A stretch of DNA of 64,000 nt from Leptolyngbya sp. Prado105 (GTDB lineage: Bacteria > Cyanobacteriota > Cyanobacteriia > Leptolyngbyales > Leptolyngbyaceae), in contig JALOOO010000003.1 of the NCBI GenBank assembly GCA_025454375.1, positions 1 to 64,000 of the forward strand, in the 5' to 3' direction. A program made the position numbers and the translations under genes. Below the pieces are notes generated by a model. That model saw only the letters and a list, made by a program, of their open reading frames with translations, was not told where the DNA came from and ran no database searches. The number at the start of each line of letters is the position of its first letter. The stretch's first letter is position 1. Of this stretch, positions 1 through 6,787 are shown one piece after another.

Positions 1-105
1 GCACATTCATTGATTAGCCAGTCTGAGACATCTCTAGAGTCCTGAAGACCGGATATAAATCCGGTAGCTCGCTTATATCCCCCGCGTTTCAACCGGGGGT
101 TTTAC
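1..105 (+). mobile_element. Right end of an IS200/IS605-like element (partial)
   Basis: Two compact hairpins are visible: ACCGGAT-ATAA-ATCCGGT at 48-65, and CCCCCG/CGGGGG around a CGTTTCAAC loop at 79-99, followed by TTTTACG. A C-rich stem with a CGTTTCA loop at the very end is typical of right ends of cyanobacterial IS605-type TnpB elements, where the 3' structured region can act as an omega-RNA scaffold. The transposase or tnpB gene itself would lie left of the window, so this is inference from structure. The sequence passes straight into a truncated hsdS reading frame, which supports an insertion boundary near 100-110. An ordinary terminator is the alternative. Confidence 0.45.
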
Positions 106-106
106 G

Positions 107-385
107 CATTCACCCGATAAAGAAGTTCTAGATTTGACCTATCTTCTGCAAGTTTTTAGCATGACTTGTGCATTCGACAGTGTAAAGCATCTTGATTTGC
201 CATTTATTAATCAGCAAATGATTTTGCCTCTTCCGGTTCCAATTCCTCCGATCGAGCTTCAGCAAGAATTTGCTCGACGAGTAGACGCGATCGAACAACT
301 CAAAATCACACATCGCGAATCGATCGCCCAACTCGATGCCCTCTTCGCCTCGCTCCAACATCGCGCTTTTCGAGGCGAACTGTAG
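107..385 (+). pseudogene. hsdS: Type I restriction specificity subunit HsdS, C-terminal fragment
   Basis: The frame reads through to a TAG at 383-385 and carries the typical end of an HsdS second half: a target-recognition tail, the motif PIPPIELQQEF, then a long helix with RVDAIEQLK and ending LQHRAFRGEL. HsdS pairs with HsdM and HsdR and sets the DNA target of a type I restriction-modification enzyme. A full HsdS is about 400-450 residues; only about 90 remain. The only start codon in this frame is a TTG at 134, and an in-frame stop lies at 65-67 inside the IS605-like end, so the gene looks cut by insertion rather than merely split by the window edge. The stop codon lies in the target duplication of the next element. 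Confidence 0.75.
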
Positions 386-442
386 CGTAACCTGAATTCG
401 GGATAAGAAATAACGCGAATGGGGCATTTTTGTATCAGGAAT

Positions 443-526
443 GACACTTTTAATCCCGACCGCGATACTTTTAATCCCGACCGCGATACTTTTAATCCCA
501 ACCGCGATACTTTTAATCCCGACCGC
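443..526 (+). repeat. Four tandem 21-bp repeats
   Basis: Four consecutive units of the pattern GATACTTTTAATCCCGACCGC run head to tail; the first has GACAC for GATAC and the third has CCAACC for CCGACC. Because 21 is a multiple of three, each frame shows a seven-residue periodicity (for example DTFNPDR), but no frame has a credible start, ribosome binding site or conserved product. The array sits inside the MITE-like element. Confidence 0.9.
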
Positions 527-714
527 GACTCTCCAACGTTCAAGCCCGACTCTTTTAGTCCCGACCTCGAACTTCTGGATCTTCGACTTCGATACTTTTG
601 ATCTCGACTTCGATACTTTTAATCTCGACCGCGACTCTCCAACGTTCAAGCCCGACACTTTTAGTCCCGAAGTCGAACTTCTGGATCTCCGACCTCGACA
701 CTTTTGATCTCAAA
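521..714 (+). repeat. Two diverged ~90-bp copies in tandem, offset 106 bp
   Basis: The segment starting GACCGCGACTCTCCAACGTT at 521 recurs at 627 with scattered substitutions, continuing through ACTTCTGGATCT and CTTTTGATCTC. Shorter pieces of the 21-bp unit are embedded in both copies, so the block looks like a second-order duplication of the same repeat family inside the element. Confidence 0.75.
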
Positions 715-913
715 CTTTAAGCCTCTGAATCTCAACGCCGGGACTCAGAGGCTCAAAGACAGGAAGAATAGAACCGCGATCGCGAATCAACCTGCTTATC
801 CCGAACTCAGGTTAGCGTAGAATCCTCAGCATGACAAAAATACTCACAGACTATCAGGGGTGACAAATCCGTCTCACCAATGAACGAAGACAGCCCATCC
901 AGAAATGGAGCCA

Positions 914-957
914 GCGATCGAGCAACTCAAAGCTACACATCGCGAATCGATCGCTCA
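914..957 (+). pseudogene. Second hsdS scrap (duplicate of the coiled-coil segment)
   Basis: GCGATCGAGCAACTCAAAGC and the following bases match 287-330 of the hsdS fragment at about 39 of 44 positions, encoding AIEQLKATHRESIA. Homology stops abruptly at 957, where unrelated sequence (the sugar-binding protein remnant) begins. This is a leftover of a second or rearranged hsdS copy and cannot make a product. Confidence 0.65.
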
Positions 958-962
958 TCGAT

Positions 963-1328
963 CTACTGCTTTGTACTGGCAACATTACGACAGATTCCCG
1001 TCGTGTCACCCTTCAATCCATTACAAATCTGCTCCCTCGTTAGATATCCATCCGCAATCACAGTCTGCTGAACATTCGATCGATCCACCGCGATCGAATC
1101 TAACAATACCGATGCCAACTGTCCTCCCGACTTCAATGCCGTCTGCCCATTCACCAACGCTCCCGGATCAGTTCCATTGCTCAACGCCGCGACTAACTGC
1201 GCCGTCACTTGCGCCTCCTTCGCGATCGGCTTATAAACTGTCATCGCCTGATCACCTGTGAGAATGTTCTGAATTCCTGCGACAGTCGCATCTTGTCCCG
1301 TCACCAGCACCTTGTCATTTTTTTGCTG
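963..1328 (-). pseudogene. XylF-like sugar ABC transporter substrate-binding protein, C-terminal remnant
   Basis: The reverse-strand frame reads NDKVLVTGQDATVAGIQ followed by MTVYKPIAKEA, the typical C-terminal lobe of periplasmic xylose/multiple-sugar binding proteins of the XylF/ChvE group (type I periplasmic binding fold). Such proteins are about 330-370 residues; about 120 remain. A TGA lies immediately upstream in frame (1329-1331), the N-terminal lobe and signal peptide are missing, and no permease or ATPase gene is adjacent. It abuts the hsdS scrap, so it is judged a rearrangement remnant. The GTG at 1308-1310 is the only start offered and has no ribosome binding site. Confidence 0.7.
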
Positions 1329-1330
1329 TC

Positions 1331-1631
1331 AAGCCAAGAGCGTTGCTGATTGACAAAAGGCTTAAGTAATCATACTCAATCAATCAACGAATGTTAATCG
1401 AGTTGACTCTACTTCGTTGAGTGAGGGTCGAGACGTTCTTCAGATGTTTCTCAGAGGCGATCGCTCTAATCTAGAAACATAGAAGCAAAGCAGCTAAACC
1501 TTCTCGCCACAAGGAAACGACGCTTAATAGTTCAATGTCAATGTGAATCAGTCAGAAAACACACTTTCTCAAAGGACGGTAGCTTGTCGCTGTTGTTCGT
1601 TGTTCGCTATATTTCACCGAAGAGGTCAACC
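1331..1631. other. Intergenic region with a candidate promoter
   Basis: No gene was recognised in these 301 bases. A possible sigma-70 promoter for the downstream PfpI-like gene is TTGACA (1350-1355), a 17-base spacer and TACTCA (1373-1378). The -10 box is weak, and the implied leader of about 250 bases is long. Confidence 0.3.
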
Positions 1632-2324
1632 ATGTCTCAGAGACAAACTCCTTCCATTAAAATTGGCATGATGCTGTTTCCAAGTCTCAGTGAGATAGAG
1701 TTCATGGCTCCCTACGGAATCTTTTCGTATCTGCCAAATACTCAGATCTACCGCATCGCCCCAACGCTTGAGCCAATCTACTCTGACACCGGATTTCCGC
1801 TAATTCCGAATACATCCTTTGAAAAAGTGCCTGAGTTAGATGTCTTGTTTGTTCCGGGTGGTTTGGGGGTGACTGCCAAACTAGAAGATGCAGAATTTCT
1901 TCAGTTTTTGCAGCGACAGGGTGAACATGCTCGCTACATCACTTCAATTGGTAGCGGATCGCTGCTACTCGCAGCAGCTACCTTGCTGCGGGGGCATCGT
2001 GCGACTACAGATTGGTCTTCCCTAGAATTGCTAGCAATGCTTGGTGCAGAGCCTGTTGCAGACCGAATCGTAGTGGATTGTAATCGCATTACCGCAAGCA
2101 GCCCCACAGATGGACTTGCCTTAGGAAGCGCGATCGCACAAGCACTATTGGGAGACGCGATCGCACAAGAAACTCAGTTGCGACTCGACTATAATCCAAC
2201 CTTGTTCACCGCTGGCTTTCCAGAATTGCTGCCTGCGGAAACCTTTGCTAGAGTCCGGGCTGAACAGCAAACGCTATCAAGGGCAAGATTACAGATTATT
2301 CGGCGCATTACTTCTACCGTATAA
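1632..2324 (+). CDS. DJ-1/PfpI family protein, catalytic cysteine replaced
   Basis: A 230-residue protein of the DJ-1/PfpI superfamily (class I glutamine amidotransferase-like fold), closest in layout to isonitrile hydratase-type members: strand IKIGMMLFP with acidic EIEF (20-24), then VLFVPGG (71-77), then the nucleophile elbow and LLRGHRATTDW. In active relatives the elbow reads S-V-C-T-G; here it reads SIGSG (105-109), so Gly107 stands where the cysteine nucleophile should be. It may therefore be a non-catalytic binding or regulatory homologue. The ATG at 1632 was chosen because AGAGG lies 6 bases upstream; the ORF-track start at 1584 has no such site. The substrate is unknown. Confidence 0.85.
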   Translation: MSQRQTPSIKIGMMLFPSLSEIEFMAPYGIFSYLPNTQIYRIAPTLEPIYSDTGFPLIPNTSFEKVPELDVLFVPGGLGVTAKLEDAEFLQFLQRQGEHARYITSIGSGSLLLAAATLLRGHRATTDWSSLELLAMLGAEPVADRIVVDCNRITASSPTDGLALGSAIAQALLGDAIAQETQLRLDYNPTLFTAGFPELLPAETFARVRAEQQTLSRARLQIIRRITSTV

Positions 2325-2522
2325 GAACTCTGTCCGCTTCTGCAATGGATAGTGTCAGAATTTGCGAAATTGGTACAGAAACTATTTTGAAAATTGAACT
2401 ATTTTTATCGATCGCGCGTAAAACCCCTGTGCCTTGTGCCCTACTGTGTACACAATTCGGTAGGCTGTACATTATCTATCTTGTCGCACTACGATCGAGG
2501 TTGAACGATCTCAATTCTCAAA

Positions 2523-3653
2523 ATGCTTTGGCTTGAAATCCTGTTTACAATCCCAATTCTGGGATCAATCGTCTTTTATCTTGCCTGTATCTGGTTCACG
2601 CTACAGTTCTTCTCGGCTGTACAATCGAATCAACCCTCCTCAGAAGATCCTGTCACGATTCTCGTTCCTATTTGCGGACTAGACGAAGGTGCATTCGAGA
2701 ACTGGTCGTCACTTTGTACCCAGGACTATCCCACCTACGAAGTTCTGTTTGGAGTCGCGGATGAAACTGACCCTGCCGTTCCCGTTCTCAATCAGCTTAA
2801 GGCAATCTATCCCGATCGCGTTCGAGTCTTTGCAGGACTTCCTCCACGCGGTATCAACTTCAAAGACAGCACCTTAAGCTACCTGCTAGAACAGACAAAA
2901 TCCGAAACGCTCATCTTTGCCGACAGCGACATCCGGGTTGCGCCAGACTATATCCAGACGGTCACCGCACCCCTTGATCGCGCAGATGTCGTGACCTGCG
3001 GCTACATTGCACATCATCCTCAATTTTTCACCTCTGCGATCGCCTCGTTAGGTCGCTGCTGTGACTTTATTCCCAGTGCTTTAATTGCTCAATTCCTCGA
3101 TCGCGGCTTGAACTTCGCCATTGGGGTCACGATCGCCACTCGCAAATCCACCCTCGCCAACTTCGGCGGACTCCACCTCAACCGTATCGGTTCAGACTAC
3201 AACCTCGGCAAACGCGCTGCTCAAGCAGGCTACACCGTTGAACTCTCTCACTTAATTCTTGAATCCGATACTGGACAAGAAAGCATCCGCGACTTATTTC
3301 AACGAGAATTGCGCTGGTCAAGAACCATTCGATTCAATCGAGGTAAGATTTACTACACTATGATTTTTTGCTATGGAACTGTGCTATGTCTGCCCTTGCT
3401 TTTTGTCTCGGACTTCGCGACTTGGGCGATCGCTTTAACTGGACTCGTCTATGGACTTCGCTTTCTTCAAGCCGCGATCGCAGCACGACAAATGCAAGCT
3501 CCGAATCTCCTTCGTTGGCTATGGGCTTTACCATTTCGGGACGGATTGAGCTTTGTCATTTGGGCGATCGGTGGATTTGGACGAGAAGCCTACTGGCGTG
3601 GACGACGGCTGCGAATTGAAGGCGACGGTATTATCCAGCAAATCGATAGCTGA
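2523..3653 (+). CDS. Ceramide glucosyltransferase-like / HpnI-type glycosyltransferase (GT21)
   Basis: A 376-residue membrane glycosyltransferase of GT family 2/21. Residues 5-30 form an N-terminal membrane helix. The catalytic domain shows TILVPICG (45-52), the metal and nucleotide binding DSD (135-137, in FADSDIRV), a third acidic site GSDYNLG (223-229) and the (Q/R)xxRW product-binding motif in RELRWSR (261-267), which marks the ceramide glucosyltransferase/HpnI group. Two or three C-terminal helices follow from about 280. Family members glycosylate lipids at the membrane (ceramide in eukaryotes, hopanoid side chains for bacterial HpnI); the lipid acceptor here cannot be deduced. No other hopanoid gene is adjacent. 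Confidence 0.85.
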   Translation: MLWLEILFTIPILGSIVFYLACIWFTLQFFSAVQSNQPSSEDPVTILVPICGLDEGAFENWSSLCTQDYPTYEVLFGVADETDPAVPVLNQLKAIYPDRVRVFAGLPPRGINFKDSTLSYLLEQTKSETLIFADSDIRVAPDYIQTVTAPLDRADVVTCGYIAHHPQFFTSAIASLGRCCDFIPSALIAQFLDRGLNFAIGVTIATRKSTLANFGGLHLNRIGSDYNLGKRAAQAGYTVELSHLILESDTGQESIRDLFQRELRWSRTIRFNRGKIYYTMIFCYGTVLCLPLLFVSDFATWAIALTGLVYGLRFLQAAIAARQMQAPNLLRWLWALPFRDGLSFVIWAIGGFGREAYWRGRRLRIEGDGIIQQIDS

Positions 3654-6001: not shown

Positions 6002-6787
6002 CTACCAAAGGGCACGAACCCCGCCAGAAGTTCCACTATCATCATCATCCGTGTTAGAAGGAGTCGTGGTTGAGTCTGGCGTTGTAGTTGAGTCTGGGGT
6101 TGTGGTCGAACCTGGTACTGTCGAATCTGGAGTTGTGGTCGAACCTGGTACTGTCGAATCTGGGGTTGTGGTCGAATCCGGTACTGTCGAATCTGGGGTT
6201 GTGGTCGAATCCGGTACTGTCGAATCTGGGGTTGTGGTCGAACCTGGTACTGTCGAATCTGGGGTTGTGGTCGAACCCGGTACAGTGCTTGGAGAAGACT
6301 GGGAAGGAGTGGTCGGAACAATCACATCACCAGACGGACTTGAAGGAGTCGTACTTGGTGAAGTTGGGCTAGAAGTCTCTGGAGTAATCGTCGAGGGAGT
6401 GCTGCTTGGAGAAGATTGAGTCGGGCTAGAAGTCCCTGAACCAGGTGAAGTTTGTGACATACTTCCTGAACTCGAAGAGTCTGCCGACGCTGAGGAAGCA
6501 CGATTGTAAGGCGCTTCGTTAAAAATGCTGGGATTTGGATTCACCTTCGCCAGCGAAGGAGTGGAATTGCGTGGGGCATCTGCACTTGGCGTACTAGAAG
6601 GCGCACTCATCATAGAATCGGGTGTCGCTTGAGCCAATGTGCGAGTATAGGGAGCTTCGCTAAAAACGCTCGGATTTGGATTCAACGGCGACTGTGCCAT
6701 TGCAGGTAGCGAGAGTAAAGAGCCAAAACTTGCAACTCCGATCGTGCCTGCTAACTTTTTGAGTGCATTTCTGTTCATTCCGTTCAT
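6002..6787 (-). CDS. Exported low-complexity Ser/Thr/Pro-rich repeat protein
   Basis: A 261-residue protein with a signal peptide (about 1-31, ending LSLPAMAQ). Two copies of a conserved cyanobacterial-looking motif follow: NPNPSVFSEAPYTR and NPNPSIFNEAPYNR, about 50 residues apart. The rest is almost entirely Ser, Thr, Pro and Gly, with about six 11-residue repeats of the form TVP(G/D)STTTPDS, then an acidic NTDDDD patch and the C-terminus GGVRALW. Such composition suggests an extended, possibly O-glycosylated, surface or periplasmic protein. An in-frame ATG two codons inside (MNRNALKK) could also be the start. The function is unknown. Confidence 0.7.
   Translation of the reverse strand: MNGMNRNALKKLAGTIGVASFGSLLSLPAMAQSPLNPNPSVFSEAPYTRTLAQATPDSMMSAPSSTPSADAPRNSTPSLAKVNPNPSIFNEAPYNRASSASADSSSSGSMSQTSPGSGTSSPTQSSPSSTPSTITPETSSPTSPSTTPSSPSGDVIVPTTPSQSSPSTVPGSTTTPDSTVPGSTTTPDSTVPDSTTTPDSTVPDSTTTPDSTVPGSTTTPDSTVPGSTTTPDSTTTPDSTTTPSNTDDDDSGTSGGVRALW
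6099..6290 (-). repeat. 33-bp tandem repeat array inside the exported-protein gene
   Basis: About 5.8 units of a 33-base repeat (plus-strand unit beginning GTTGTGGTCGAACCTGGTAC) start at 6099, 6132, 6165, 6198, 6231 and 6264. They encode the 11-residue TVP(G/D)STTTPDS units. The near identity of the copies suggests recent slippage or unequal recombination, so copy number may differ between strains. Confidence 0.9.

What the first reader, a model, noticed from the sequence alone, without database searches (positions are those of the whole stretch)
390..812. MITE-like element with 18-bp TIRs, 7-bp TSD and an internal tandem-repeat cargo
Inverted ends ACCTGAATTCGGGATAAG and CTTATCCCGAACTCAGGT match at 17 of 18 positions and are flanked by TAGCGTA direct repeats at 383-389 and 813-819. 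The interior is tandem repeats with no transposase gene. The end sequence resembles IS982-type termini (inference). The insertion restored the hsdS stop codon through the duplication.
Basis: partly seen in the sequence, partly recalled or inferred. Interest (0 to 1): 0.6.

Follow-up and report, generated by a model that had tools for sequence, protein, structure and literature searches.

The report
IS982-type MITE carrying a minisatellite
A 423-base piece of DNA with the ends of a common bacterial jumping gene (IS982 family), but no jumping enzyme of its own, sits just behind a broken gene in a cyanobacterium and carries a run of 21-base repeats of a type found elsewhere in related genomes; it is a well-formed but fairly ordinary non-autonomous mobile element.

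Summary
Window 390-812 is a 423-bp element with inverted ends matching at 17 of 18 bases, flanked by perfect TAGCGTA duplications. It holds no transposase, only a degenerate 21-bp tandem array plus a hairpin. Of 27 pairs with 6-7-bp TSDs, 23 read TA...A.

In the window's own draft assembly the ends occur only here and no IS982 transposase was found, so it is an orphan needing a transposase in trans. The cargo is not IS sequence: similar 21-bp arrays without IS982 ends lie elsewhere in this genome and in relatives. The visible novelty is an IS982-ended MITE that has taken in such an array; MITE plus minisatellite (BrickBuilt) and IS982-derived MITEs (MITECca01) are both described.

The stop-codon remark is wrong: TAG is the native hsdS stop, the hsdS is a 3' remnant, and nothing was restored. 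Empty-site proof was not obtainable.

The parts
383..389 (.). left target-site duplication TAGCGTA; its TAG is the native stop codon of the hsdS remnant
390..407 (+). left terminal inverted repeat ACCTGAATTCGGGATAAG
408..442 (.). left subterminal stretch; its inner part, TTTTGTATCAGGAATGACAC, matches the border of a TIR-less array in congener contig G023:C44
443..709 (.). degenerate minisatellite, 21-bp unit (GACACTTTTAATCCCGACCGC), 12.6 copies, higher-order period 106
   Evidence: similar arrays
715..758 (-). hairpin; on the minus strand it precedes the array, and a hairpin in the same place, still pairing, stands beside the array at G000:C112
759..794 (.). right subterminal stretch of unknown origin
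795..812 (-). right terminal inverted repeat (ACCTGAGTTCGGGATAAG on the minus strand)
813..819 (.). right target-site duplication TAGCGTA

Best explanation
This is a non-autonomous IS982-family element (MITE-like, 423 bp). Shown: IS982-type ends, an exact 7-bp TSD of the IS982 TA...A form, no transposase, and an interior made of a 21-bp minisatellite whose relatives lie elsewhere without such ends. Inferred: an IS982 transposase acting in trans inserted the element into TAGCGTA, at the stop codon of a decayed hsdS 3' fragment. The array module got between two IS982 ends earlier, by deletion or recombination or by insertion into a smaller MITE, and rode along. No host function for the array is shown.
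For: Ends, TSD and array. Autonomous elements with the same ends: G020:C6:119723-120700, 978 bp, TSD TAAGTTA, 315-aa ORF hitting NF033520 IS982 at 252 bits (cut-off 130) and PF13612 at 240 bits, plus L005, L007, L014, L115, L166, L171 and a frameshifted L058. Ends with at most 1 mismatch in 21 of 42 genomes of the order, no match to the reversed control pattern. Of 54 distinct paired elements, 27 have 6-7-bp TSDs and 23 of these read TA...A. TIR-less arrays: G000:C112:26576-26742 (70% over 168 nt, E 1e-10, with hairpin), G023:C44 (E 6.8e-6, border homology), more found with a congener array in eight genomes of two genera.
Against: Single copy: ends and element occur once in the 5.69-Mb, 383-contig, 93%-complete assembly, and no IS982 transposase is detected there, so neither amplification nor present mobility is shown. 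No empty site. Both ends are of the GGGATAAG type, whereas the cyanobacterial IS copies examined pair one GGGATAAG with one GGGTTAAG end, so the immediate parent is not identified.
Confidence: 0.88

Rival explanations
1. The element is an internally deleted IS982 copy whose leftover internal sequence expanded into a tandem array; the array is then IS-derived, not captured DNA of the host lineage.
For: IS-derived MITEs commonly arise by internal deletion (MITECca01); the left end keeps a GGGGCA motif at about the same offset as IS982 5' ends.
Against: Similar 21-bp arrays, with matching border and hairpin, occur without IS982 ends in this genome and in congeners; none of the other 53 paired IS982-end elements holds such an array.
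Confidence: 0.08
2. Two separate IS982-type end remnants happen to flank a native intergenic array, with no single transposition event for the whole 423 bp.
For: The array class is common; G000 has no autonomous IS982 copy in its assembly.
Against: The exact 7-bp TSD of family-typical form directly outside both TIRs is what one event over the whole unit leaves.
Confidence: 0.04

Closest known systems
MITECca01 (Cardinium, derived from ISCca4, IS982 family; PMC9769881)
   Same: Transposase-less element of a few hundred bp with IS982-type inverted ends, thought to depend on a parental IS982 element.
   Different: MITECca01 is about 240 bp, multi-copy, with an intact parent in the same genome, and no minisatellite is described; here one copy, 423 bp, no parent in the assembly, interior a 21-bp array.
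BrickBuilt MITE (Porphyromonas gingivalis; PMC4596501)
   Same: A MITE whose interior is a minisatellite (23-bp units) between leader and tail with inverted ends.
   Different: BrickBuilt has IS5-family-like 12-bp ends (ISPg1/ISPg9), 19 copies, variable or doubtful TSDs; here IS982 ends, one copy, clear 7-bp TSD, different unit.
IS982-family insertion sequences (NF033520) of cyanobacteria, e.g. G020:C6:119723-120700
   Same: Same 18-bp ends within 1-2 bases and the same TSD form.
   Different: About 0.96-0.98 kb with a ~300-aa DDE transposase; no tandem array; one A-type and one T-type end.

Membership tests
MITE (non-autonomous IS derivative) | terminal inverted repeats | tested here: met
   17/18
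MITE (non-autonomous IS derivative) | target-site duplication | tested here: met
   TAGCGTA twice, exact
MITE (non-autonomous IS derivative) | no transposase of its own | tested here: met
   no IS982 protein match in this genome
MITE (non-autonomous IS derivative) | multiple copies in the genome | tested here: not met
   one copy in the draft assembly, hence 'MITE-like'; a 383-contig draft could hide further copies
IS982 family (ends) | ends shared with elements that encode IS982-family transposase | tested here: met
IS982 family (ends) | TSD length and sequence like those of IS982-ended elements | tested here: met
   6-7 bp, TA...A in 23 of 27
IS982 family (autonomous IS) | encodes an IS982 transposase | tested here: not met
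   no such ORF in the element; a non-autonomous relative only
BrickBuilt-type MITE | IS5-like ends (GAGACC...) and 23-bp unit | tested here: not met
   ends ACCTGA..., 21-bp unit; built alike but not a member

The most novel reading that the evidence does not exclude
The 21-bp arrays, two helical turns per unit and found outside large ORFs in two genera with strongly drifting sequence but a kept period, are functional chromosomal sites (for instance for a DNA-binding protein or for control of transcription read-through). The IS982-ended element would then be a way in which such a site moves to a new place.
Probability: 0.08. Interest if true: 0.55.

Novelty: new member of a known kind. Interest (0 to 1): 0.27.

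Why it matters
It is a clean example, in a cyanobacterium, of an IS982-ended non-autonomous element that carries a minisatellite of the host lineage, and so one plausible route by which dispersed tandem arrays spread. The wider point, that 21-bp-period arrays recur across this group with fast-drifting sequence but constant period, is more interesting than the element itself and can be tested.

Tried and rejected
Plasmid collection, distant blastn of 383-819: no match. Rfam over 1-3000: none. Search of 386 genomes across the phylum with the interior: only the window's own genome. Own-genome search for an IS982 transposase by protein and by NF033520: none, while all 7 congeners give matches and 5 of them pass the cut-off. 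Empty site in the genus: flanks match only as separate pieces. RNA fold of the element: the minus strand is more stable than shuffles (z -8.5), but TIR pairing and the hairpin account for much of it, and what remains folds only somewhat better than simple shuffles, so I make no RNA claim. Promoter/terminator scan: one promoter-like site inside the element (441-469), no terminator; consensus matches only. Dyad symmetry of the 21-bp unit: not significant for this array (p 0.12); about half of the other arrays give p below 0.05.

Full report
Observation. The element lies at 390-812 as stated. The 18-bp ends match at 17 positions and are flanked by exact TAGCGTA copies at 383-389 and 813-819. The interior is a degenerate tandem array at 443-709, period 21, about 12.6 copies, with a higher-order period of 106, followed by a hairpin at 715-758. 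There is no transposase gene. By simple arithmetic the joint occurrence of the ends and the 7-bp duplication is far beyond chance (about 3e-6 for the window).

Which family. A search for the end sequence with at most one mismatch in 42 genomes of the order found it in 21, with no match to the reversed control pattern. Pairing the ends gives two classes: elements of about 0.96-0.98 kb, and shorter ones of about 70-350 bp. The long element in congener G020 (C6:119723-120700, 978 bp, TSD TAAGTTA) encodes a 315-aa protein that matches NCBIfam NF033520, IS982 family transposase, at 252 bits (cut-off 130), and Pfam PF13612. Of 54 distinct paired elements, 27 carry 6-7-bp duplications and 23 of these read TA...A. 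TAGCGTA fits.

State in this genome. In the window's assembly (5.69 Mb, 383 contigs, 93% complete) the ends occur only here and no IS982 transposase is found by protein or by family model, while all seven congeners give matches to the same model and five pass its cut-off. Either the parent was lost, or it is missing from the draft. Both ends here are of the GGGATAAG type, whereas cyanobacterial IS copies combine one GGGATAAG and one GGGTTAAG end, so the immediate parent is not identified. The left end has a GGGGCA motif near the offset where IS982 5' ends have it; this is a weak hint only.

The cargo. The interior matches, at 70% over 168 nt (E 1e-10), an array at the end of contig C112 of the same genome, which has the same hairpin in the same place, still paired though its sequence has changed, and no IS982 end in sight. 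That contig stops inside the array, so its far border is unseen. A second relative, G023:C44:207-297 (E 6.8e-6), matches also beyond the repeats, at the border GTGYCATYCCTGATACAAAA, and has no IS982 ends on either side. A pattern search led to a similar array in G021:C68, and this array finds further ones in eight genomes of two genera. The 20 loci fetched for them (some overlapping) all show a 21-bp period, most arrays appear to lie outside large ORFs, and none has IS982 ends nearby. In about 550 kb sampled from this genome, lag 21 was the commonest best period among arrays of 100 bp or more (3 of 15), and at least one of these besides C112, at C40:7038-7320, has the same look. So the array is a repeat type of this lineage that was taken between IS982 ends; the capture step itself is inferred. 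Among the 54 paired IS982-end elements only this one holds such an array.

The target. The hsdS frame at 134-385 is a 3' remnant: it is closed by stops upstream, and the contig begins at window base 1. The full-length paralogue on C155 ends with the same ...GAGGCGAACTGTAG. TAG is thus native, the TSD simply includes it, and nothing was restored. No held relative has this junction, so there is no empty site; the two flanks match other places only separately.

Mechanism and standing. The best reading is transposition in trans, by an IS982 transposase, of a transposase-less element carrying a captured minisatellite. Two published cases bracket it: MITECca01, an IS982-derived MITE (PMC9769881), and BrickBuilt, a MITE with a minisatellite inside but IS5-like ends (PMC4596501). 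The combination here is a new member of a known kind. Present mobility, amplification and any function of the array are not shown.

Noticed in passing
G000:C112 (L004 1511-1725), G023:C44 (L155 138-297), G021:C68 (L208 1505-1750), L209-L227, G000:C40:7038-7320 (L261): Degenerate 21-bp-period tandem arrays, about 150-370 bp, recur in at least two related cyanobacterial genera; the period is kept while the sequence drifts, often with alternating GAGT/ACTC motifs. Function unknown.
   Followed up: partly
window 914-957; G000:C155:17632-17732; G019:C2:299666-299759: Short fragments of the hsdS 3' end lie downstream of hsdS genes or remnants in this genome and in a congener (about 89-91% identical).
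   Followed up: partly
window 6087-6286: 33-bp tandem repeat, 6 copies, 94% match, within the minus-strand ORF at 6002-6787 (repeats of the type PDSTVPGSTTT).
   Followed up: no
window 963-1310 (minus strand): Open frame of 115 aa that reads like the C-terminal part of a periplasmic sugar-binding protein (impression only), apparently lacking its N-terminal part.
   Followed up: no
loci, e.g. L069, L106, L055, L034, L030, L064: Transposase-less elements with nearly identical IS982 ends and recurring lengths (101, 122, 194, 204, 224 bp) occur in several phyla, i.e. the end sequence is highly conserved across distant hosts.
   Followed up: partly
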